Positions 6,321-53,253 of a stretch of 64,000 nt of DNA are shown piece by piece. The stretch spans positions 1 to 64,000 of IMG/VR virus record IMGVR_UViG_3300032053_000016. One strand, 5' to 3'. Each line of letters begins with the position of its first letter. Position 1 is the first letter of the stretch. The notes beneath the pieces were generated by a model. That model was not told the DNA's origin, did no database searches, and saw only the letters and a program-made list of their open reading frames with translations. Source of the stretch: a virus. The translations under genes were made by a program, and so were the position numbers.

Positions 6321-7544
6321 TCATCCCTTGACGCACAAAACTTGCTTAAGAACGTGTACGATCTCCACCAGCTCGGCTTGGGCTGCCATCACCGCGTCAA
6401 TGCTCTTGTAAGCGCCTGGAGTCTCGTCGACCACGCTCGCGTCCTTGCGACACTCGACACCTTTGGTGGCTTCAACGTGATCCTCAACCGTGAACGTTTT
6501 CTTCGCCTCCGTGCGTGACATGCGACGGCCGGCGCCGTGCGAGCAGGAACACAGGCTGTCGCGGTTGCCCTTGCCTCGCACGATGAACGACTTGGCGCCC
6601 ATCGATCCTGGGATGATGCCGAGCTCGCCAAGCTGAGCGGAGACCGCTCCCTTACGTGTGACCCACAGCTTGCGACCGAAGTGCCTCTCGCTTGAGATGT
6701 AGTTGTGGTGGCAGTTGACAGCCTCCACCTCGGCGTTCGCGTTCCAAGTCACGCCGAGCTCCTTGACGACGGCGTCGAGCGTGGCGTCCATCATGACCTC
6801 GCGGTTCAAGCGAGCGAAGTCCTGGCCAAACCTGACAGCCTGGATGTACGCCGTGTAGTGTTGACTGCCCTCCGGAAGGTACGAGAGATCCTTGTCGGGC
6901 AAGTTGATGTGCCAACGTTCCATCTCCTTCTTCGCAAGCGCGATGAAGTGCGAACCGACACGGTTGCCGACCCCGCGTGAGCCGGAGTGAAGCATCAGCC
7001 ACACGTTCTGATCCTCGTCGCCGCACACCTCGATGAAGTGGTTCCCTGACCCGAGCGTGCCGAGGTGGCCGATGGTCGTTCCTCGGTCGAGGCCGGGGTA
7101 AAGTGCAACAAGCTTCTTGTACTCCGCGTCGAGCGTAGACCAACGGTCGCGAACGTTCTGCGGCACGTCTCCCCATGCGCCACGGTCGTTGCGACCGCCT
7201 TGATCTGTGCGTCCGTGCGGGACAGCCTTCTCGATGACGGAGCGTAGGCTCGCGAGGCTGTCTGGAAGCTGTGACAGCTTGAGGTCAAGCTTGCGCGCCA
7301 TCATTCCACAGCCGATGTCCACACCCACGGCCGCGGGGATGATCACCCGATCTGTGGGGATGACGCTGCCGACCGTCGCGCCGAAGCCTTTGTGCACGTC
7401 CGGCATGACTGCGAGGTGCGGCCACACGAACGGCAACGTGGCGACGTTGACGAGCTGCTCCTCAGCCGGCTCCTCAAGCTCAACGCCGTCGACCCACGCC
7501 TTGATGGGCACGCGTTGCCCCTCTCTCCCTGTGATGACCTTCAT
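6321..7544 (-). CDS. rtcB: RtcB-type RNA-splicing ligase
   Basis: The protein has 407 residues, the usual RtcB length. RtcB joins a 2',3'-cyclic or 3'-phosphate RNA end to a 5'-OH end using GTP and Mn2+. Conserved pieces are visible in order: GVDIGCGM (74-81, metal-binding Cys79), LGSGNHF (164-170), NCHHNY (277-282) and the guanylylated histidine in SHGAGR (His336). The ATG at 7544 is preceded by TAAGAT at 6-nt spacing. Downstream lie GxVW genes in the same direction. In a phage it would reseal tRNAs cut by host anticodon nucleases, which is inference. Confidence 0.95.
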   Translation of the reverse strand: MKVITGREGQRVPIKAWVDGVELEEPAEEQLVNVATLPFVWPHLAVMPDVHKGFGATVGSVIPTDRVIIPAAVGVDIGCGMMARKLDLKLSQLPDSLASLRSVIEKAVPHGRTDQGGRNDRGAWGDVPQNVRDRWSTLDAEYKKLVALYPGLDRGTTIGHLGTLGSGNHFIEVCGDEDQNVWLMLHSGSRGVGNRVGSHFIALAKKEMERWHINLPDKDLSYLPEGSQHYTAYIQAVRFGQDFARLNREVMMDATLDAVVKELGVTWNANAEVEAVNCHHNYISSERHFGRKLWVTRKGAVSAQLGELGIIPGSMGAKSFIVRGKGNRDSLCSCSHGAGRRMSRTEAKKTFTVEDHVEATKGVECRKDASVVDETPGAYKSIDAVMAAQAELVEIVHVLKQVLCVKG

Positions 7545-10298: not shown

Positions 10299-11381
10299 AT
10301 GTCAGAATTTCACGTGAACGTGGTCCGTCTCACGAACGTCCAGAAGCACCCCAACGCTGACTCGCTGTACATCGCGAAGATCCATGGTGGTTACCCGATC
10401 ATCTTCAAGGGAAAGGAGTTCGGAGGAGCCTTCGAGGAGGGCGATCTCGCCGTCTACATCCCTGTTGACAGCATGGTGCCCGCGACGAAGGAGTACGCTT
10501 GGCTGTCCCCGCAGGTGGAGATCCTTCTGCCTGGCGGAGAGAAGCAGATGGTCGACGCGGACGTCCCACGCGACAAGGATCGACGCGTGCGTGCCAAGCG
10601 ACTGCGTGGAGTCTTCTCGATGGGCATGCTCGGCGTCGCGCCGGAAGGCGCTGTTGAAGGCCAGGACGTGGCCGAGCTCATGGGCATCACCAAGTACGAG
10701 GAGGCCGAGGATGTCATCAACGCTTCGCGCACCGACGGGTTTCAGGTGCCGGCGCCGCGTCTCAAGGCGATGCCGAGCGTCTACGACATCGAAGGCCTGC
10801 GTCGCTACACCAGCGCCTTCAAGGTTGGCGAGGAGTACGTTGTCACCGAGAAGCTTCACGGCCAGAACGCGCGCTTCGTCCACGACGGCGAGAGACTTCA
10901 CGTCGGCTCACGCACGCGCTGGCTGACCACCGCGGAGCGTCACACGTGGGCAGACGCGGCAACGCGTTACGTGCTCGCCGAGAAACTCAAGCAAGCGCCG
11001 GGCATCGTCTTCTTCGGCGAGACCTACGGCAACAACACCGACATGTCGTACGGCGTGACGCGTGCCAAGACCGGCGACGAGGTCCGCTTCTTCGACGCGT
11101 GGAACTCGGAAGACGGGTCGTTCTTTGATCATGACGTCTTCCTCAACATGTGCAAGTCGTTAGACCTACAGGTCGTCCCCGAGCTGGCGCGTGGCACGTG
11201 GGCAGAAGGTGAGTTCGAGAAGCTTGCGCCGCTTGCAGAAGGCAAGACGACTCTCGGAGGCGGACACGTGCGCGAGGGTTTCGTCATCAAGCCGTTGAAG
11301 GAACGTTTCTGTGAGGAGATCGGCGGGCGGCTAATATTGAAACTACATGGAGCGGATTTCCTCCTTCGAAAAGAAAAGTAA
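10299..11381 (+). CDS. RNA ligase, DRB0094/Rnl5-like family
   Basis: The protein has 360 residues. It belongs to the nucleotidyltransferase ligases that seal a 3'-OH to a 5'-phosphate in RNA using ATP. Residues 1-130 form an OB-like N-terminal domain of the kind found in the Deinococcus DRB0094 family. The AMP-accepting lysine is Lys185 in TEKLHGQN (motif I). FFGETYG (238-244) is motif III, EGFVIKP (326-332) motif IV and LILKLHG near 345 motif V. The start has TAGACT at 6-nt spacing. With RtcB, Thg1 and Pth2 it forms an RNA-repair set. Confidence 0.9.
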   Translation: MSEFHVNVVRLTNVQKHPNADSLYIAKIHGGYPIIFKGKEFGGAFEEGDLAVYIPVDSMVPATKEYAWLSPQVEILLPGGEKQMVDADVPRDKDRRVRAKRLRGVFSMGMLGVAPEGAVEGQDVAELMGITKYEEAEDVINASRTDGFQVPAPRLKAMPSVYDIEGLRRYTSAFKVGEEYVVTEKLHGQNARFVHDGERLHVGSRTRWLTTAERHTWADAATRYVLAEKLKQAPGIVFFGETYGNNTDMSYGVTRAKTGDEVRFFDAWNSEDGSFFDHDVFLNMCKSLDLQVVPELARGTWAEGEFEKLAPLAEGKTTLGGGHVREGFVIKPLKERFCEEIGGRLILKLHGADFLLRKEK

Positions 11382-13089: not shown

Positions 13090-13466
13090 GTGGGTTTCTC
13101 CCAGTCACGTTCCTCGATCATCCGCGCGACTCGACAGATGACGCGGTACATGCCTGCCTTCTGCGGGTCAGCCTGGTACTCCTCAGAGATGGGCAACCGC
13201 AAGAACGTCGTGATCTTGGCGATCAGACGATCCTCGATCTCACGCTCGTGATCGGCGCTTCCGACCGGTGGATGCCACGTCATGTCGTCGTCGTAGTACC
13301 CGAGCGTGTTGATCTCTCCGTAGTAACCACTCTCAGTTTCACCGCACACCTGACAAGGATACAGTTGCAAGACATTCTTGAGCGTCACGGGGCAGTCGTC
13401 CATCCCGTACTTGCACCCGTGTTGATCACAACAGTGAGACGGACAGCAGGTGTGGTTGTCGTTCAC
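13086..13466 (-). CDS. Cys-rich hypothetical protein, putative zinc binding
   Basis: The protein has 126 residues from GTG 13466 (GTGA with the thg1-like stop). The N-terminal 42 residues hold a dense cluster, CCPSHCCDQHGCKYGMDDC followed by CQVCGE, likely binding one or two zinc ions. The C-terminal half is helical. It is in the same unit as the Thg1-like gene. Function unknown. Confidence 0.65.
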   Translation of the reverse strand: MNDNHTCCPSHCCDQHGCKYGMDDCPVTLKNVLQLYPCQVCGETESGYYGEINTLGYYDDDMTWHPPVGSADHEREIEDRLIAKITTFLRLPISEEYQADPQKAGMYRVICRVARMIEERDWEKPT

Positions 13467-14236
13467 TCATCCTCCGTCGCGAGCAGACTCTCAACGTACT
13501 CACGCTTCTCGCCGAACATCGGGATGTCGGTGTCGACCTTCCACCCTTGACGTTCGCCAGAGAGCGGGCAGTAGTTCTTCTTGACGCAGCGACCTTTACG
13601 GATCGTTGGCGTCAGATTCTCCCAGGGTTGACCGGCGTCACGGCACATGTCCTTCATCGTCGAGACGTTCTTACCCTCGCACTGCTTGTGTGAGAAGAGC
13701 GAACGCGCGTGCATCTGAACGCTGTTGCGCACGGCGTCTTGCTGGCGCCAAATGAAGTAATTCGTGACTTCACCCTCGGGGATGATGAACGCGCGAGCGT
13801 CGAAGTAGGCCGGCTCGATGTCCTCGACGCCGACGTGCGCCCGCTCGTCACCTGTTTTAAACAGACGCCACGACTTGGCGGTGAACGTTGACGAAGCAAT
13901 GGCGGCTGCGACTGACACGATCTTCTGCAGCTGATTATCGTACCACGGCTGCGTGTCGAACGTTTTGTAACTGTGAACGAGGACGGACACCTCATCAGAC
14001 TGAGAGTAGGCAAGCTCCGCACCCTGGATGTTATGACACAGCGCCATTGCGACGCCCTCCATGATGGAGATGAAGTCTCGATTGAACGGCTTGTCAGGCA
14101 GGTGTTTCGTGTACTTGCTGAAAGCCTTTCCATCCACGCGGATGATGAGTGGCATGCGGCGCGGGAACTCGGCCCGCGCGGCCTCTTCGTATCGCTTCAT
14201 CCGTGATGCCAACGAGCTGCGTTCATGGTCTGACAT
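13463..14236 (-). CDS. Thg1-like 3'-5' RNA polymerase (tRNA-His guanylyltransferase family)
   Basis: The protein has 257 residues from ATG 14236. Thg1 and Thg1-like proteins add nucleotides to the 5' end of tRNAs in the 3'-5' direction; the bacterial and phage forms repair truncated 5' ends. RVDGKAF (Asp35) and YSQSDEVSV (Asp81, Glu82) supply the metal-binding carboxylates. The start overlaps the end of an HNH homing-endonuclease gene by 14 nt and has a GGGGA ribosome-binding-like stretch. In-frame sequence upstream lies within the HNH gene and is not expected to be coding. Confidence 0.9.
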   Translation of the reverse strand: MSDHERSSLASRMKRYEEAARAEFPRRMPLIIRVDGKAFSKYTKHLPDKPFNRDFISIMEGVAMALCHNIQGAELAYSQSDEVSVLVHSYKTFDTQPWYDNQLQKIVSVAAAIASSTFTAKSWRLFKTGDERAHVGVEDIEPAYFDARAFIIPEGEVTNYFIWRQQDAVRNSVQMHARSLFSHKQCEGKNVSTMKDMCRDAGQPWENLTPTIRKGRCVKKNYCPLSGERQGWKVDTDIPMFGEKREYVESLLATEDE

Positions 14237-14879
14237 GGCTTCCCCAATTCTCGTGTGCTTGTTTGTGACACGTTCGACAGAGCGTGATCCCATTTCGAAG
14301 TTCGACATCCACAATGTCTGGATGCGCGATGACGAACTCAAGCTTCTCTTCTTCATCACGAAAAGTGAGACCGTTCACGATCCGCTTGATGATCTTGACC
14401 ACTGATTCGATGTGATGTGCGTCGAGCTTTTCGCGCGAAGGACATTTCTGACATGTCGATTTGTCACGCTCGAACACTCGAGCGTACCATCCGACACGCG
14501 TTGACAACAGACGTTTGACACGCTTCGTGAACGAAGCCTTCCCGCCTTTCCAAGCGGTTGCATTACAGCCAGTCTTACCAACTCGAGCCGACGACATCAA
14601 GCGCTTGGTTTCGGTTGTGTGCTTGCGGCCGTACATCCCGTTCTTCTCGTCGTTGATGTCGAGCTTTTTTCGTGACTCCTTGTGAGCTTCTGATGCTCGC
14701 ATCTTTTCGCTCAAAACAGCGCGTCGAATGGGGTCGGCCCACATCGTTTTGTACCTTTCGGAGGTGCACGCGCGACAACGGTAGAACCCGTTTCTCTTCA
14801 CTGTTTTGCTGTAGGAGTCGCTCCATATGACATTCACGGTTTCGCAGAAAGAACACTTGGCTTCAAGTTTTGAGCGCAT
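14223..14879 (-). CDS. HNH homing endonuclease (NUMOD3 type)
   Basis: The protein has 218 residues. An N-terminal zinc module has CSFC (9-12) and CRAC; the middle carries NGMYGRKHTTETKRLMS, a NUMOD3-like DNA-recognition segment. The C-terminal HNH part has CQKC...LDAHHIE and GITLCRTCHKQAH. Such enzymes cut intron-less or intergenic targets and spread themselves. It sits directly upstream of, and overlaps, the Thg1-like gene, so it has inserted at that gene's 5' edge. Confidence 0.9.
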   Translation of the reverse strand: MRSKLEAKCSFCETVNVIWSDSYSKTVKRNGFYRCRACTSERYKTMWADPIRRAVLSEKMRASEAHKESRKKLDINDEKNGMYGRKHTTETKRLMSSARVGKTGCNATAWKGGKASFTKRVKRLLSTRVGWYARVFERDKSTCQKCPSREKLDAHHIESVVKIIKRIVNGLTFRDEEEKLEFVIAHPDIVDVELRNGITLCRTCHKQAHENWGSHVRP

Positions 14880-17127: not shown

Positions 17128-17430
17128 ATGGTCACGGCCGACGAACTCTCGCTCCTGGCGGAGGAGGACATCGCGGATCGCATCGGCAAGTGCCGAAGCG
17201 AGATGGGGAAACGGATGGGCGACCCGGTGTGGCGCCAGAAGTGGGAGACCGAGCTGGCGTACTCGCAGCGCGAACTGCAGATCCGACACGCGCGTCGGCA
17301 GTCCCACAGGGAGTACGTCGATCGCGAGCGCGCGGCCGACCTCAAGTTCATGCGGGAGGAGGATTTCCTTCCGGAGTACGAGGGGAACAGGATCCCACGT
17401 TTTGTGAGGGAGATGCTCGAATGGAGTTGA
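17128..17430 (+). CDS. Hypothetical helical protein upstream of sigma factor
   Basis: The protein has 100 residues from ATG 17128, with GGAAG 7 nt upstream as a ribosome binding site. It is highly charged and helical (EEDIADRIGKCRSEM, WETELAYSQRELQIRH). Codon third positions are strongly G/C in this frame. It overlaps the sigma gene by 10 nt. Co-transcription suggests a regulatory partner, but this is not shown. Confidence 0.65.
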   Translation: MVTADELSLLAEEDIADRIGKCRSEMGKRMGDPVWRQKWETELAYSQRELQIRHARRQSHREYVDRERAADLKFMREEDFLPEYEGNRIPRFVREMLEWS

Positions 17431-18164
17431 GACGCTCCAAGGACGCCGCGTCGCGACCCTCTCGCAGGGAGAACGACACGGTCGGATGGTACCTCAACAG
17501 CATCAAGGACCACGAAGTCCTGAAGCACGAGAAGCTTGTGGAGCTCTTTCAACTCCTCGAAGGCGGCAACAAGAGCGCGTTCAACGAGATCGTCAAGCGC
17601 AACCTCAAGCTGGTCGTCGCGGTCGCTCGCGCCTACCGCGACAAGGGCGTCGACTGGGAGGATCTCCTTCAAGAGGGTAACATGGGCCTCATCCACGCGG
17701 TCGAGAAGTTCGACTGGCGGCGAGGCAACAGGTTCTCCACGTACGCCACCTGGTGGATCAGACAGCGCATCAGTCATTACCTCTCCACGCAGAGGCACAG
17801 CATTCGTGTTCCGACGCATGCGCTTCGTCTCAAGAAGCACATCGAGATCACGATGGACAAGCTTCGCAAGGAAGGCGAGCAGGAGCCGTCGTGGGAGAAG
17901 ATCGCCGAGATCGTCGGCGGCTCCGCCGACGTTGTCGAAGCGACAGTCGCGGGGTCTCGAGCAACCGTCTCGCTGTCCCAGCCGGCGACATCCTCTGAGC
18001 GTGAGTCGCTTGAAGCGCGCTTTCGAACGGATGACAGCGGATCCAACGATCCAGAGCAGCCGTTCGCTCTCAACCAGTTGAGGATGGCCATGACGGCCGC
18101 CTTGAACTCCCTTGATCCGTTGGAGCGGCGCATCGTCGAGCTACGGATCGGGAGAGCAACGTGA
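17421..18164 (+). CDS. Sigma-70-like factor lacking region 4.2
   Basis: The protein has 247 residues from ATG 17421. Region 1.2/2 is well kept: NLKLVVAVARAYRDKG (61-76), DLLQEGNMGLIHAVEKFD and FSTYATWWIRQRI (105-117), the -10-binding and melting helices. Region 3 follows (140-190). Region 4 begins (LNSLDPLERRIVELR) but stops at TGA 18162, so the -35-binding helix-turn-helix is absent. The stop is coupled to the next gene as GTGA, which argues against an assembly frameshift. It may direct transcription from -10-only promoters such as the TANNNT elements listed here. Confidence 0.88.
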   Translation: MELRRSKDAASRPSRRENDTVGWYLNSIKDHEVLKHEKLVELFQLLEGGNKSAFNEIVKRNLKLVVAVARAYRDKGVDWEDLLQEGNMGLIHAVEKFDWRRGNRFSTYATWWIRQRISHYLSTQRHSIRVPTHALRLKKHIEITMDKLRKEGEQEPSWEKIAEIVGGSADVVEATVAGSRATVSLSQPATSSERESLEARFRTDDSGSNDPEQPFALNQLRMAMTAALNSLDPLERRIVELRIGRAT

Positions 18165-18385
18165 TGTGGGCCTTTTGGCGTGGTCAAGGTTGGCGCTGCG
18201 AAGGCGGTGCCCCTTGGGTCTCTCACGCTTATGAAGGCGAAATCGCAAAGGGATCGCATTGGCAGTACGTGGACGTCCACGCTCGAAGCCTGTGCGGAGA
18301 GGTTGTCGCGCGCCAAGCGTACGAAGCTCATCGCGCGCCACATCCCGATGCTCCAGCATGCTTCAAATGCATGAGGCTTACGTGA
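18161..18385 (+). CDS. Small zinc-finger-like protein
   Basis: The protein has 74 residues from GTG 18161 (GTGA with the sigma stop; the next codon is ATG). SLCGE in the middle and ACFKCMR at the end give the spaced C...CxxC arrangement common in small phage zinc proteins. Function unknown. Confidence 0.65.
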   Translation: MMWAFWRGQGWRCEGGAPWVSHAYEGEIAKGSHWQYVDVHARSLCGEVVARQAYEAHRAPHPDAPACFKCMRLT

Positions 18386-18570
18386 CACGCAATCACGTCT
18401 TCTACGTCTACGACATGCGAACGCAGATGACGGACTTCGTCGCCTCGTTCGCTGTTCGTGGACACGCCGAGAAGTACGCGAGCGACAACTTCGACGAGCA
18501 CGGGTACGTGACCGACCGTCGTCACCACCACAAGAACCAGGTTTGGGACGGTCGAACGGAGACGAAATGA
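18382..18570 (+). CDS. Hypothetical 62-aa protein
   Basis: The protein has 62 residues from GTG 18382 (GTGA). NHVFYVYDMRT and MTDFVASFAVRGHAEKYA suggest a small alpha/beta fold; the end is His-rich (RRHHHKNQVW). Function unknown. Confidence 0.62.
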   Translation: MTRNHVFYVYDMRTQMTDFVASFAVRGHAEKYASDNFDEHGYVTDRRHHHKNQVWDGRTETK

Positions 18571-18806
18571 TGGAAAAGAAGCTTGCTTTGGTCGCGGACA
18601 TTGTGTCCAACCTGGAGAAAGAGGGTGTCACGATCACGCCAAACGCGGTGCGTGCGAAGTTGCGCACTGCCATGCTGCGTCTCGCTCACGAGTCGTGTCG
18701 TGCGATGGGCGCTGACGTTGACGAGGATGAGCTCGAACGCATCGCAGGATCGCGTGCTTTCCAGGAAGCGGTGGCCTCGCTCCTGATAGAGGAAGACGCT
18801 GCATAG
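18567..18806 (+). CDS. Hypothetical helical protein
   Basis: The protein has 79 residues from ATG 18567 (ATGA). It starts MMEKKLALVADIVSNLEKEG and has the pattern GVTITPNAVRAKL, then acidic helices. Possibly a small DNA-binding or regulator-like protein; not recognised. Confidence 0.62.
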   Translation: MMEKKLALVADIVSNLEKEGVTITPNAVRAKLRTAMLRLAHESCRAMGADVDEDELERIAGSRAFQEAVASLLIEEDAA

Positions 18807-18814: not shown

Positions 18815-19186
18815 GTGGCCAAATACCAAAAGAGAACAACACTCGAATCCGTCGCCGCTCGTCGAAATCAGACGCTTGCTCAACTCGTCGCTGATTGGGG
18901 CGTGAAATCGTTGGATGATCTTGCCAAACGATGCAAACGTGAAGATGTGGCCATGCCCGCAAACTTCACGTTTGCTGTTTCTGTCACAGAGGTCAAGAAG
19001 GATGAACTGCAGGCCAAACTCCACATCACGATAGACGGTGTCGCTGAAGGGCTTTCGAAAGAAAGTGAAGAACTTCCGTTGAAGAAGGCTCGCAAGGGTA
19101 AACTTACTGCTCATGAGCCTGCTGCAAGTGACGAGCACGTCGGAGTGGATGCGGACACAGCTACTGGCTCTGAAGACCCGGCCTGA
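18815..19186 (+). CDS. Hypothetical protein with acidic C-terminal tail
   Basis: The protein has 123 residues from GTG 18815. The N-terminus is basic (AKYQKRTTLESVAARRNQT) with a short helix-turn-helix-like LAQLVADWGVKSLDDLAKRC; the last 35 residues are acidic and probably disordered. The 3' end overlaps the next frame. Function unknown. Confidence 0.6.
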   Translation: MAKYQKRTTLESVAARRNQTLAQLVADWGVKSLDDLAKRCKREDVAMPANFTFAVSVTEVKKDELQAKLHITIDGVAEGLSKESEELPLKKARKGKLTAHEPAASDEHVGVDADTATGSEDPA

Positions 19187-45485: not shown

Positions 45486-46247
45486 TCAGAGATCGAGGAT
45501 CCCGATTCGTTCAAGACGGTAACGTCTTTTGATAGACTGGAGCGCAGTTGTGAGTTGCTTGGATGTGAGCCCTGACAGTTCTCGCAAGTAAAGCAGGATT
45601 CCGCTCTTGTTTAGGATGTCAGGAGCGTTGTGACCGTTCACGAGCTCGAACAGACGTGAGATCGAATCGATGCACAAGATCTCGTTTGGGTTGGTTGTCT
45701 CATGACGTAGTTCCCCCAACATGGCAACGATCTTCCTTGATATGATCCCGTCTGGTCGATTCTCATCCTCAAACACACGCTGAGAATCCTCCATGATTTG
45801 AGACTCGAACGGCGCGATCTGATCCTCGTCGTCGATGGAGATGAGTCTTCTAGCCTTGGTGTTCTTCTGCTTCGTACGGATGATGAGCCAGTTCTTGGCA
45901 ACGACGTTGAAATACGAGAAGGCATTTGTTCCTCTCGTTGAGTCAAACTTGTGAATGGTCTCAAAGAGAAAATGCACACAATCGAACTTCAACTCTTCAG
46001 AAGTCTCATTTGCTGCCGTGAAACGATGGATGTTGACAAGGTTGTCAACCAACGCTGTGAACGCTGGTGAGATCCTTGCCACGTAGACGATGTCACGTGC
46101 CTTCTTATCCTCGCCTAGCCCTTGGTACTCGACGATCGCGGCTTGCGTGTCAGCATTGAAGTACATGCGAGACGGATCGGTCTTGCCCGGTTTCCGCTTG
46201 ATCTTCGGTCGTGGCAACGTGGATTTTTCATTCTTGATCGGTGTCAC
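45486..46247 (-). CDS. Late-transcription sigma factor, gp55-like
   Basis: The protein has 253 residues from GTG 46247, overlapping the upstream gene by 20 nt. Residues about 85-130 (DCVHFLFETIHKFDSTRGTN, FSYFNVVAKNWLIIRTKQ) are a shortened sigma region 2 as in T4 gp55. The C-terminus (LTSKQLTTALQSIKRRY) may be a small helix-turn-helix. In T4 gp55 recognises only a -10-like TATAAATA and works with gp33 and the sliding clamp. It lies beside the baseplate genes it may switch on. Confidence 0.83.
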   Translation of the reverse strand: MTPIKNEKSTLPRPKIKRKPGKTDPSRMYFNADTQAAIVEYQGLGEDKKARDIVYVARISPAFTALVDNLVNIHRFTAANETSEELKFDCVHFLFETIHKFDSTRGTNAFSYFNVVAKNWLIIRTKQKNTKARRLISIDDEDQIAPFESQIMEDSQRVFEDENRPDGIISRKIVAMLGELRHETTNPNEILCIDSISRLFELVNGHNAPDILNKSGILLYLRELSGLTSKQLTTALQSIKRRYRLERIGILDL

Positions 46248-46554
46248 TTGTTGGAACCTTCTCTTCTTCTTCGGTATTCCAACTTTGAGCGAGGCGAATT
46301 GCCACAGTCATAAGGCTGGCGTGAACTCGCTTGAGCTCGTTGTGAATCTGTAACACTCTGGCATCGTTTGCCGCCAATGGCATGTCAAGGATCTTTCCAA
46401 CCACGATGTGAGCCGTGTTGATCGTGTCAAGACATGCTTCAACGGCTAAACCACCGGCATAGGCCGTGTTGTTGATCTTCAACGCTCGAAGTGTGATCAA
46501 CACGTTACCGGTGATGCTCGCTATCAACAGAAGAGACAAGATAACGACGATCAT
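46228..46554 (-). CDS. Small N-terminally anchored membrane protein
   Basis: The protein has 108 residues from ATG 46554 (ATGA overlap). Residues 2-24 (IVVILSLLLIASITGNVLI) form a transmembrane helix; the rest is helical and soluble with an acidic tail. Its size and layout resemble an inner-membrane spanin or holin-like protein, but the lysis role is unproven. Confidence 0.6.
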   Translation of the reverse strand: MIVVILSLLLIASITGNVLITLRALKINNTAYAGGLAVEACLDTINTAHIVVGKILDMPLAANDARVLQIHNELKRVHASLMTVAIRLAQSWNTEEEEKVPTSDTDQE

Positions 46555-47750
46555 CCGCCCACCTTCATGAGCACATCATCAAAAACAGCGCTCCAAGCGT
46601 TAGCGATAGCATCTTGACTGTATTTTGCTCGAATCTTCACGCCGAGATCCTTAGCCCACTCACGTGGGATGCTGCACGACGTGTGAAACTTGCGTACGCG
46701 TCGTCTGAAATCTGATTCAGAGACCTCAGCCCACTTCGCTCCGCGTGGGAAGATCTTGTCGTCTGCACGTTCCTTGGGGATCGTCGCCAACGTGCATGGA
46801 AGGTCCACGTAACGCCCAAGACCGAGAAACTCGGTGTGCGCTGACCAACCTGTCGCGATGACGGGCAGATCACACGCAGCTGCCTCCAGTAGTGGCAACC
46901 CAAAGCCTTCACCGCGTGTCGCGCTGACCAGCGCTTTGACGTTCGGGTGACGATACAGTGCAGCGACGGCATGATCGTCAAGGTCGCCGTGCACAAGGTG
47001 AAGCTCTGGAAGCTTCTTCTTCGTGCGTGAAGTAACATCGTTGACAATGTTTCGAACCGTGTTCTCCGTGTGATACGCGTCGAACGTGGTGCTACGACCC
47101 TGATTCGTCTTCAAAAGGATGCCAACGTCTTTGTCGTCGGCGAACTCCTCAAGCAGCCAACGTATCGTGTTGTGCAAGTTCTTGCGATCGGCACGAGCGT
47201 TATCTTGCCCTGTCATCTGCCCAAACACAAGAAACGTGAACAAGGGTAGCGGATCCAACGTTGAAGTGTCGATGTTTGCGTCAAGAAGCGCGCTCGGAAA
47301 ACTCTCAGCGATGACGTGTGCTTTTTCAACAGGAGCGGACCAACCAGCGTTCTTGAGACTGTTGAGCGCGTGCTTAGATGGCACAACAACATGATCCATA
47401 CTGTTACACGCTGTCACCCACTCAGGAACTGATTTGTCAGTTTCAACCGCAGCAGTGACACCAACGTTCACGGTCGCGAGCGTAGGGTTCCATTCATTTG
47501 GCAGCTGGAGTTGGAAGCTCACGTCAGCTTTTCTTGGCAGTGGCTTGCAGCGCATCGCGAGCGCGTTCACAAGCGGATCGCGATCGACGTTCGTGATCCA
47601 GGTCGTGTTCCCCCAATACAACGGCTCACAGTAAAGTTCGATAGAGTCAGCGGCGACGAGACGCATCAACCACTCGCCAATCTGACGTGCGTGCGTGCCG
47701 TATCCCGACATTGTCAGGATGGGCGCGCGCAGGATGACGACGGGTTTCAC
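46551..47750 (-). CDS. Glycosyltransferase, GT4-like (GT-B fold)
   Basis: The protein has 399 residues from GTG 47750 (GTGA with the next gene). The nucleotide-sugar-binding C-terminal domain shows RGEGFGLPLLEAAACDLPVIA, the E-x7-E pattern of GT4 retaining enzymes. The N-terminal domain has KPVVILRAP and SGYGTHARQ. Tandem with another GT. It transfers a sugar to an unknown acceptor, perhaps virion proteins or a cell-surface glycan. Confidence 0.85.
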   Translation of the reverse strand: MKPVVILRAPILTMSGYGTHARQIGEWLMRLVAADSIELYCEPLYWGNTTWITNVDRDPLVNALAMRCKPLPRKADVSFQLQLPNEWNPTLATVNVGVTAAVETDKSVPEWVTACNSMDHVVVPSKHALNSLKNAGWSAPVEKAHVIAESFPSALLDANIDTSTLDPLPLFTFLVFGQMTGQDNARADRKNLHNTIRWLLEEFADDKDVGILLKTNQGRSTTFDAYHTENTVRNIVNDVTSRTKKKLPELHLVHGDLDDHAVAALYRHPNVKALVSATRGEGFGLPLLEAAACDLPVIATGWSAHTEFLGLGRYVDLPCTLATIPKERADDKIFPRGAKWAEVSESDFRRRVRKFHTSCSIPREWAKDLGVKIRAKYSQDAIANAWSAVFDDVLMKVGG

Positions 47751-49000
47751 TTGATCACCTTCTTGGTCCAACGTGGTCGCCTAGAACGCCAGTTGGTGAT
47801 CACGTCATCCAACCCCTTGTCCCATGTCTTGATAAGGTTGTCCATGTCAAACTCCGTGTGAGCGTAACGCATCGCTTTGAGTCCCAACTCCTTACGAACA
47901 TCAGGCTCCATCTTGTACATCTGCCAGTAAGCATCGGCAACAGACTCTGGTTTGACGATGTCTTCCACGATGTACGGCGTGGATTGGCTGCCAACAAGTT
48001 TCTTGCAGTCGACTTCAAGCGGGATGCCGTTGAACGATCCGTCACGGTAATCAATGACTTGCCGCGTCATGCCTCCTGTCTTGTTGGCAATGATGGGCTT
48101 GCCGCACATCATCGCTTCAAGCGTTCCGAGCCCAAATCCTTCAGCGTACGAGATGTTGACGACCGCGTCCGAGATGTTGTAGAGCACACGCATGTCGTCG
48201 AGGTTGAGCTGCTCACGTGAGAACACAACGTTGTTGTTGAGCTTGAGGATGTCAAGGACATGCAACAGGTTAGGCCCTTCGAAATCGTTTGGATCGGTGT
48301 GCATCAACAGCGTTGCCTTCTGATGACCCTCTTCTTGCTGGAGTTTATCAAGGAACATTCGGAAAGACCACATCACATCTGCTGGACGCTTGCGGTGCGC
48401 GTTGCGGTTGACCCATGAAACGACAAAGTGATCTGAGCGGTCTGGCAGTAGACGGTTGCGATGCATCTGCTGCTCACCGACGGGAAGCGGGTAAAAGACG
48501 TCCTTCGGCAAGGCATGTGGAGCCCACTTGACCTTCTCATCGCCGAAGATCGGCTGCAGGAAGTCGTACGTTGGACGGTTGATGCAGAAGAACATGTCGA
48601 CGATGTCGTACACGTTCCTGTTGTAGAGCGGCGGGTACTCACACTGATCCCAGAGATGGTTGTACACGATGGGGCACACCTGGTGGATCTCGTCGTGCAC
48701 TTCAAACATGTTCATGAAGAACCGAGGGTCGTTGAAGATCACGATGGCGTCTGGCTTTTCGGTCGCGAGGAGCTGCCGATAGAGATTCTTGTCGCCGAAC
48801 CCATCGATCGGTTTCACGCAGACGTCGATTCCTGGGACCTGGACGACGTCGTAGTTCTCGTGTTTGATGGCCGCGCCAAGTTGGCAGATCTTGTACTTGT
48901 TGGTTGCGGCGAGCCCGCACGCGAGGTAGCGACTTTGCGTGCCGACTCCTGAACTTGCGAGGAGGTTATCACTGACTAGGACAATCTTCTTCTTTGTCAT
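47747..49000 (-). CDS. Glycosyltransferase, GT4-like (GT-B fold)
   Basis: The protein has 417 residues. The N-terminal KIVLVSDNLLASSGVGTQSR and the C-terminal YAEGFGLGTLEAMMCGKPIIA identify a GT4 enzyme; the two Glu of EGFGLGTLE are the E-x7-E pair. It is coupled to the next GT by GTGA. No upstream TANNNT at 6 nt; a TATATT lies 15 nt before the ATG. Confidence 0.87.
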   Translation of the reverse strand: MTKKKIVLVSDNLLASSGVGTQSRYLACGLAATNKYKICQLGAAIKHENYDVVQVPGIDVCVKPIDGFGDKNLYRQLLATEKPDAIVIFNDPRFFMNMFEVHDEIHQVCPIVYNHLWDQCEYPPLYNRNVYDIVDMFFCINRPTYDFLQPIFGDEKVKWAPHALPKDVFYPLPVGEQQMHRNRLLPDRSDHFVVSWVNRNAHRKRPADVMWSFRMFLDKLQQEEGHQKATLLMHTDPNDFEGPNLLHVLDILKLNNNVVFSREQLNLDDMRVLYNISDAVVNISYAEGFGLGTLEAMMCGKPIIANKTGGMTRQVIDYRDGSFNGIPLEVDCKKLVGSQSTPYIVEDIVKPESVADAYWQMYKMEPDVRKELGLKAMRYAHTEFDMDNLIKTWDKGLDDVITNWRSRRPRWTKKVIK

Positions 49001-53052: not shown

Positions 53053-53175
53053 GGTCTTTTCCTTTCAAGTCACATCGTCACGCGTTTTCACACGGATGAG
53101 ACTCGGAGGACCACGTGGCCGATGGTTATAGCGATAGCTGGATGTTCATGATGCCTTAGATAGTAGTCTGTTTAG

Positions 53176-53253
53176 CGCGCCCGACCGGATTCGAACCGGT
53201 GATATGAAGGTCTATTAGTCTTCATGCTTTAGGCCGGACTAAGCAACGGGCGC
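53176..53253 (-). tRNA. tRNA-like gene with expanded anticodon loop
   Basis: A 7-bp acceptor stem (GCGCCCG/CGGGCGC), a D arm (GCTT stem, AGTCCGGCCTA loop), and a T arm ACCGG-TTCGAAT-CCGGT are all present; CCA is not encoded. The anticodon stem TGAAG/CTTCA is 5 bp, but the loop ACTAATAGAC has 10 nt instead of 7. The anticodon cannot be assigned with certainty. It may be a suppressor or frameshifting tRNA, or non-functional. Confidence 0.75.

What the first reader, a model, noticed from the sequence alone, without database searches (positions are those of the whole stretch)
17421..18164. Phage sigma-70-like factor ending just before region 4.2, beside a gp55-like sigma elsewhere
Regions 1.2 to 3 are intact, but the protein stops after LERRIVELR, so the -35-reading helix-turn-helix is missing. 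The stop is coupled to the next gene by GTGA, so a frameshift is less likely. The -10-only TANNNT promoters in this window have no obvious -35 box. A sigma that needs only a -10, together with a gp55-like factor at 45.5 kb that also recognises -10 only, would explain this.
Basis: partly seen in the sequence, partly recalled or inferred. Interest (0 to 1): 0.68.

Follow-up and report, generated by a model that had tools for sequence, protein, structure and literature searches.

The report
Phage sigma factor split into pieces
A phage gene for a promoter-recognising sigma factor really does stop just before the part that reads the -35 box, and in dozens of related uncultured giant phages the same cut is conserved and a separate small protein carries the missing part, so sigma appears to be built from separate polypeptides in this phage family.

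Summary
ORF 17421-18164 is a sigma-70 factor with regions 1.2 to 4.1 that ends at the 4.1/4.2 border (LRIG-RAT-stop). No reading frame downstream and nothing else in the 107-kb record carries region 4.2. It is not a frameshift. All 141 relatives fetched from IMG/VR (75 distinct DNA sequences) stop at the same border, after a short tail, and the gene neighbourhood is conserved. A tree joins the window protein to them and separates all of them from full-length sigmas (100/100).
New: ten of 14 larger relatives, all those whose conserved site lies on the contig, encode a separate protein of about 90 residues. It has four invariant cysteines and a canonical region 4.2 (Pfam Sigma70_r4 positions 12/18/20-49), complementing the sigma's 1-18/22. 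Its conserved site beside a PhoH-like gene is empty in the window's phage. A second small protein (window 18567-18806), probably helix-turn-helix, always follows the sigma; its descent from region 4 is not supported.
So sigma is split in this phage family; which partner restores -35 or beta-flap contact is inferred.

The parts
17421..18164 (+). sigma-N: sigma-70 regions 1.2 to 4.1, ends before region 4.2
   Evidence: clade with split sigmas 100/100
18099..18149 (+). retained region 4.1 (Sigma70_r4 profile positions 1-17 only)
17128..17430 (+). conserved upstream gene of the operon; overlaps sigma-N start by 10 nt
   Evidence: alignment with the gene in the same place in L080-L083: 22% identity to the first row, 11 invariant columns
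18161..18385 (+). small ORF coupled to the sigma-N stop (GTGA overlap), unknown; occupies the place of a short probably membrane protein in relatives
   Evidence: no family match
18367..18570 (+). second small intervening ORF, unknown
   Evidence: read from sequence
18567..18806 (+). operon helix-turn-helix-like protein ('C-part'), 79 aa, starts in an ATGA overlap
   Evidence: only significant hit in the whole record of an HMM from 59 relatives, E=6e-5, next best 4; hhalign 95.9%, E=6e-9; AlphaFold pLDDT 89, four helices
18815..19186 (+). conserved downstream gene of the operon
   Evidence: alignment with the gene in the same place in L080-L083: 23% identity to the first row, 11 invariant columns
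45486..46247 (-). gp55-like late sigma (sigma region 2 type)
   Evidence: phrog_234 E=2e-5; 67 relatives in IMG/VR

Best explanation
17421-18164 encodes sigma-N, the large subunit of a naturally split sigma-70 used by a family of uncultured T4-like giant phages. SHOWN: it keeps regions 1.2-4.1 and lacks 4.2; the cut is conserved in all relatives found; most testable relatives encode the missing region 4.2 as a separate four-cysteine protein, and every one encodes an HTH-like protein just downstream of sigma-N. INFERRED: sigma-N binds the host core polymerase through regions 2 and 3 and reads and melts the -10 (residues equivalent to E. coli sigma-70 W433, W434, Q437 and H455 are kept, numbering from memory). 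The region-4 function (beta-flap binding, -35 or upstream contact) is added in trans by a small partner, so that the phage can choose promoter classes by partner. In the window's own lineage the canonical 4.2 gene is missing from its site, so sigma-N there works either with the operon HTH-like protein at 18567-18806 or with -10 contacts alone.
For: Truncation in 141 of 141 relatives' loci = 75 distinct DNA sequences, tail of 24-31 aa after RFG, under purifying selection (median dN/dS 0.10 sigma-N, 0.14 C-part, 0.17 tail). P0001 plus split sigmas form a 100/100 clade against full-length sigmas. Separate 4.2 protein in 10 of 14 sigma-N records, 34.6-38.1 bits over a 24.1 cutoff, profile positions 12/18/20-49 against sigma-N's 1-18/22, in one case 31. 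The two polypeptides match complementary parts of one sigma profile (phrog_351 485-700 and 694-725). 4.2 protein: invariant TL..IG.IY.LTRMRICQIEK and four invariant Cys. C-part found by its own scan: 65 of 65 loci have sigma-N upstream, none fused. gp33 (phrog_254) absent from all 15 records searched. Key -10 and melting residues invariant (W111, W112, Q115, H133 of P0001).
Against: No physical interaction data. The 4.2 gene lies 40-100 kb from sigma-N, and could equally serve the gp55-like factor. In the window's own record the 4.2 gene is not at its conserved site and an HMM finds none. The C-part shows no detectable homology to region 4.2 and its fold finds no sigma match. P0001 is on a long branch.
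Confidence: 0.55

Rival explanations
1. One reading: sigma-N works alone as a -10-only (or extended -10) sigma; region 4 function has simply been given up.
For: 4.2 missing in cis in all relatives; in the window's lineage also in trans; the residue equivalent to the extended -10 histidine H455 is invariant (H133); from established knowledge, E. coli sigma-70 without region 4.2 can still use extended -10 promoters.
Against: Most testable relatives keep a canonical 4.2 protein in trans; the second extended -10 residue (E458 equivalent) is changed (R in P0001); TANNNT is not enriched; the HTH-like partner is conserved in every locus.
Confidence: 0.22
2. The separate 4.2 protein is the missing gp33 analogue and partners the gp55-like factor, while sigma-N partners the operon HTH-like protein.
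For: gp33 absent; 4.2 gene lies 26-39 kb from the gp55-like gene on the same strand in several relatives; sigma-N and C-part always adjacent, directly adjacent in the distant record G059.
Against: The 4.2 protein keeps a well conserved recognition helix and complements sigma-N's region 4.1 at the profile border, unlike gp33, which does not itself bind DNA (PMC7892883); the window's phage has a gp55-like factor but no recognisable 4.2 gene.
Confidence: 0.3
3. Decoy: sigma-N occupies host core polymerase and blocks -35-dependent host transcription rather than directing phage promoters.
For: A sigma without 4.2 would be poor at -35-dependent promoters; T4-like phages use other means to divert host polymerase (established knowledge).
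Against: The promoter-melting aromatics and -10 reading residues are invariant, which a pure decoy would not need.
Confidence: 0.07
4. Sequencing or assembly artefact, or a recent frameshift that removed region 4.2.
For: Single metagenomic record; reads could not be inspected.
Against: No 4.2 remnant in any downstream frame or in the record; the same end in all independent relatives; conserved operon on both sides.
Confidence: 0.02

Closest known systems
Group 1/2 sigma-70 (SigA, RpoD, RpoS)
   Same: Regions 1.2-4.1 align without break to PDB sigmas (E down to 3e-36).
   Different: Region 4.2 absent in cis; encoded separately in relatives.
Bacillus subtilis two-subunit sigma SigO-RsoA
   Same: Two polypeptides (22.5 and 9.0 kDa) share the sigma2/sigma3 and sigma4 parts (PMC10141391, table); [quoted passage not shown] 46), and relatives here carry a probably membrane protein inside the operon.
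   Different: Here the cut is inside region 4, between 4.1 and 4.2, in a group 1/2-like sigma; the 4.2 protein has a four-cysteine N-terminal part; phage-encoded. No sequence comparison with RsoA was run.
T4 gp55 + gp33
   Same: Phage sigma function divided between a region-2 protein and a small beta-flap/sigma4-like protein (PMC7892883); these phages have a gp55-like factor as well.
   Different: gp33 (phrog_254) absent from all 15 records tested; sigma-N is a nearly complete sigma-70, not gp55.
'Minimal sigma factor' with a single HTH in group 2 jumbo phages (Iyer et al. 2021, PMC7824862)
   Same: A stand-alone sigma HTH in giant phages has been noted.
   Different: That paper does not, in the passages read, describe a sigma-70 truncated before 4.2 next to it; no tblastn match to the four-cysteine 4.2 protein in 50,697 phage records at E<=1e-3, and no above-cutoff Sigma70_r4 match in six phage records.

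Membership tests
Sigma-70 family (group 1/2) | Region 2 (core binding, -10) | tested here: met
   Sigma70_r2 E=6e-21
Sigma-70 family (group 1/2) | Region 3 | tested here: inconclusive
   P0001 23.5 bits against a 25.3 cutoff; relatives 26.4-37.5
Sigma-70 family (group 1/2) | Region 4 with 4.2 HTH | tested here: not met
   only profile positions 1-17; no 4.2 downstream
Two-subunit sigma (SigO-RsoA type) | Missing sigma domain encoded by a second gene | tested here: met
   in relatives: 10 of 14 sigma-N records carry a separate 4.2 protein; in the window's own record not found
Two-subunit sigma (SigO-RsoA type) | The two proteins bind each other and core and together direct transcription | not testable with these tools
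   needs biochemistry
T4 late system (gp55/gp33) | gp55-type late sigma | tested here: met
   45486-46247 (-): phrog_234 E=2e-5; 16 of 18 records searched have it
T4 late system (gp55/gp33) | gp33 coactivator | tested here: not met
   phrog_254 absent in 15 of 15 records; T4 gp33 itself matches it at 2e-32
Sigma region 4 family (for the operon protein 18567-18806) | Homology to Sigma70_r4 | tested here: not met
   no Pfam match; hhalign to region 4 not significant; Foldseek none

The most novel reading that the evidence does not exclude
One sigma core with interchangeable region-4 modules: sigma-N can take either the four-cysteine 4.2 protein or the unrelated operon HTH-like protein (and the phage has gp55 besides), so promoter class is switched by exchanging the -35 reader as a separate subunit rather than by exchanging the whole sigma.
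Probability: 0.18. Interest if true: 0.85.

Novelty: new variant of a known kind. Interest (0 to 1): 0.64.

Why it matters
Sigma-70 is normally one polypeptide whose region 4.1 and 4.2 helices form one domain. A phage family in which that domain is cut between 4.1 and 4.2, with the -35 reader in trans, would be a natural test of how far -10 and -35 recognition can be uncoupled, and of how T4-like phages without gp33 run their promoter classes. It also shows that region-4-less sigmas in phage genomes need not be pseudogenes or frameshifts.

Tried and rejected
Frameshift: three downstream frames read, no 4.2. First idea that the operon protein (C-part) is the detached 4.2: dropped, because Pfam, PHROGs, hhalign, a PDB profile search and Foldseek gave no sigma-4 relation (best fold hit the Myb-type HTH of Sap1, E=0.7, PMC6053445). 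Unsplit or fused version: none among 65 loci found through the C-part. C-part or sigma 4.2 protein in named phages: no tblastn match; C-part in GTDB genomes: none. Near relative G002 (91% gp55 identity) lacks sigma-N only because its contig starts at window position about 41 kb. 4.2 gene in the window's phage: syntenic spot read in six frames, empty. Cultured phages T4, CBB, Atu_ph07, immuto, Mel-JY01 and one uncultured phage: no split sigma (CBB's sigma keeps a C-terminal stretch that I read as a divergent region 4). Promoter motif search with a crude gene caller gave only the late-type ATACTTA in G027; other enriched words looked like coding signal or tRNA and were not pursued.

Full report
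CHECK. The ORF at 17421-18164 is a sigma-70 factor. Pfam region 2 matches at E=6e-21 and region 3 weakly; PHROG 351 matches at 3e-45. Solved SigA/RpoD/RpoS sequences align through residue 243/244 of 247. The protein ends LERRIVELRIG-RAT, exactly where region 4.1 gives way to 4.2 (alignment). Pfam Sigma70_r4 matches positions 1-17 of 50 here and nothing else in the 107,401-bp IMG/VR record. Downstream frames contain no 4.2. The stop overlaps the next start as GTGA. The gp55-like protein is real: phrog_234, 67 relatives.

RELATIVES. Searching 48 records that carry the gp55-like gene gave four with a sigma-70 relative, and all four end at the same place. Two wider scans gave 141 loci, 75 distinct by DNA. 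In every one sigma-N stops 24-31 residues after the RFG of region 4.1, and a separate ORF with a conserved motif NYREIADxMTEIGFKMNHSSARNYVLRVMRKF follows on the same strand. A reverse scan with that protein gave 65 newly fetched loci, all with sigma-N upstream and none fused. Both genes are under purifying selection. A tree without the longest full-length and divergent rows puts the window protein with the split sigmas at 100/100, although its branch is long (with all rows 99/97).

WINDOW OPERON. The upstream gene (17128-17430) and the downstream gene (18815-19186) align with the genes in the same places in the relatives, and an HMM of the relatives' C-part picks 18567-18806 as the only significant ORF in the whole record (E=6e-5, next best 4; hhalign E=6e-9). 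The genes overlap by a few bases (read). Between sigma-N and C-part the window has two unknown small ORFs where relatives have a short, probably membrane protein (judged from sequence only). In the distant record G059 the C-part ORF follows the sigma-N stop directly.

THE MISSING 4.2. I first took the C-part for the detached region 4.2. Tests did not support this: no Pfam or PHROG sigma-4 match (in one search two of 60 members touch a sigma family at E=0.007 at best), no significant profile-profile match to region 4, and AlphaFold models (pLDDT 84 and 89) without a sigma match in PDB or BFVD. It looks helix-turn-helix-like, no more. But a scan of 14 larger records with Sigma70_r4 found in ten a second, separate hit above the curated cutoff covering only positions 12/18/20-49. 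These are proteins of about 90 residues with four invariant cysteines and a canonical GPHTLQEIGKIYGLTRMRICQIEK region 4.2. They match phrog_351 at 694-725, while sigma-N matches 485-700. In the four records without the gene the expected site appears to lie off the contig, judged from gp55 positions or from the absence of gp55. Two further records of 190 kb or more found through the 4.2 protein also have sigma-N and gp55. gp33 is absent throughout.

THE WINDOW'S LINEAGE. The 4.2 gene sits beside a PhoH-like gene in the relatives checked. In the window's record and in its relative G002 the flanking genes are present but the 4.2 gene is not, and a dedicated HMM finds none in either. Both records are incomplete, so a copy elsewhere is not excluded. 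The window sigma has also lost the conserved tail after 4.1.

MECHANISM. Shown: truncation, its conservation, separate 4.2 protein in relatives, constant C-part neighbour, gp55-like factor, no gp33. Inferred: sigma-N binds core and reads the -10 (invariant W111, W112, Q115, H133), and the -35/beta-flap part is provided in trans. Which protein does this is not shown; the 4.2 protein may instead serve gp55. For the window's own lineage a -10-only mode is not excluded. TANNNT counts give no support to it (563 seen, 632 expected). A late-type motif ATACTTA without -35, 3-34 nt before the next possible start codon at 23 of its 25 sites, occurs in relative G027 and probably belongs to the gp55-like factor.

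KNOWN. Divided sigma functions are known (T4 gp55/gp33, PMC7892883; SigO-RsoA, PMC10141391) and stand-alone sigma HTH proteins in giant phages have been noted (PMC7824862). I found no report of a sigma-70 cut between 4.1 and 4.2 (library searches; subscription papers are mostly not held).

Noticed in passing
G027 and other relatives (e.g. L323:2860-3117, L325:2888-3175): Small protein with four invariant cysteines followed by a canonical sigma region 4.2; at least 166 IMG/VR loci; no tblastn match in named phages.
   Followed up: yes
G027 (L300-L315), 25 sites; also G002 and window record positions 86478, 99623 and 104827 (TACTTA): Late-promoter-like ATACTTA motif a few bases before start codons, 25 seen and 5.2 expected, no -35 element.
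   Followed up: partly
window 6321-7544 (-), 10299-11381 (+), 13463-14359 (-): RtcB RNA ligase, RNA ligase and tRNA-His guanylyltransferase close together: an RNA/tRNA repair set.
   Followed up: no
window 53175-53253 (-): tRNA-like gene with a four-base anticodon call (aata) by ARAGORN; possible frameshift-type or odd tRNA.
   Followed up: no
window 46551-49000 (-): Two adjacent glycosyltransferase genes of the same PHROG (2170).
   Followed up: no
L328 (G054:132927-133277): A second sigma-70 in one relative whose region 4 is atypical, with a shortened HTH (VTSDDGVRERIMAIEAKALAKL).
   Followed up: no
L080:2271-2552, L082:1151-1429 and equivalents: Short probably membrane protein encoded between sigma-N and the C-part in relatives; replaced by unrelated ORFs in the window.
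   Followed up: partly
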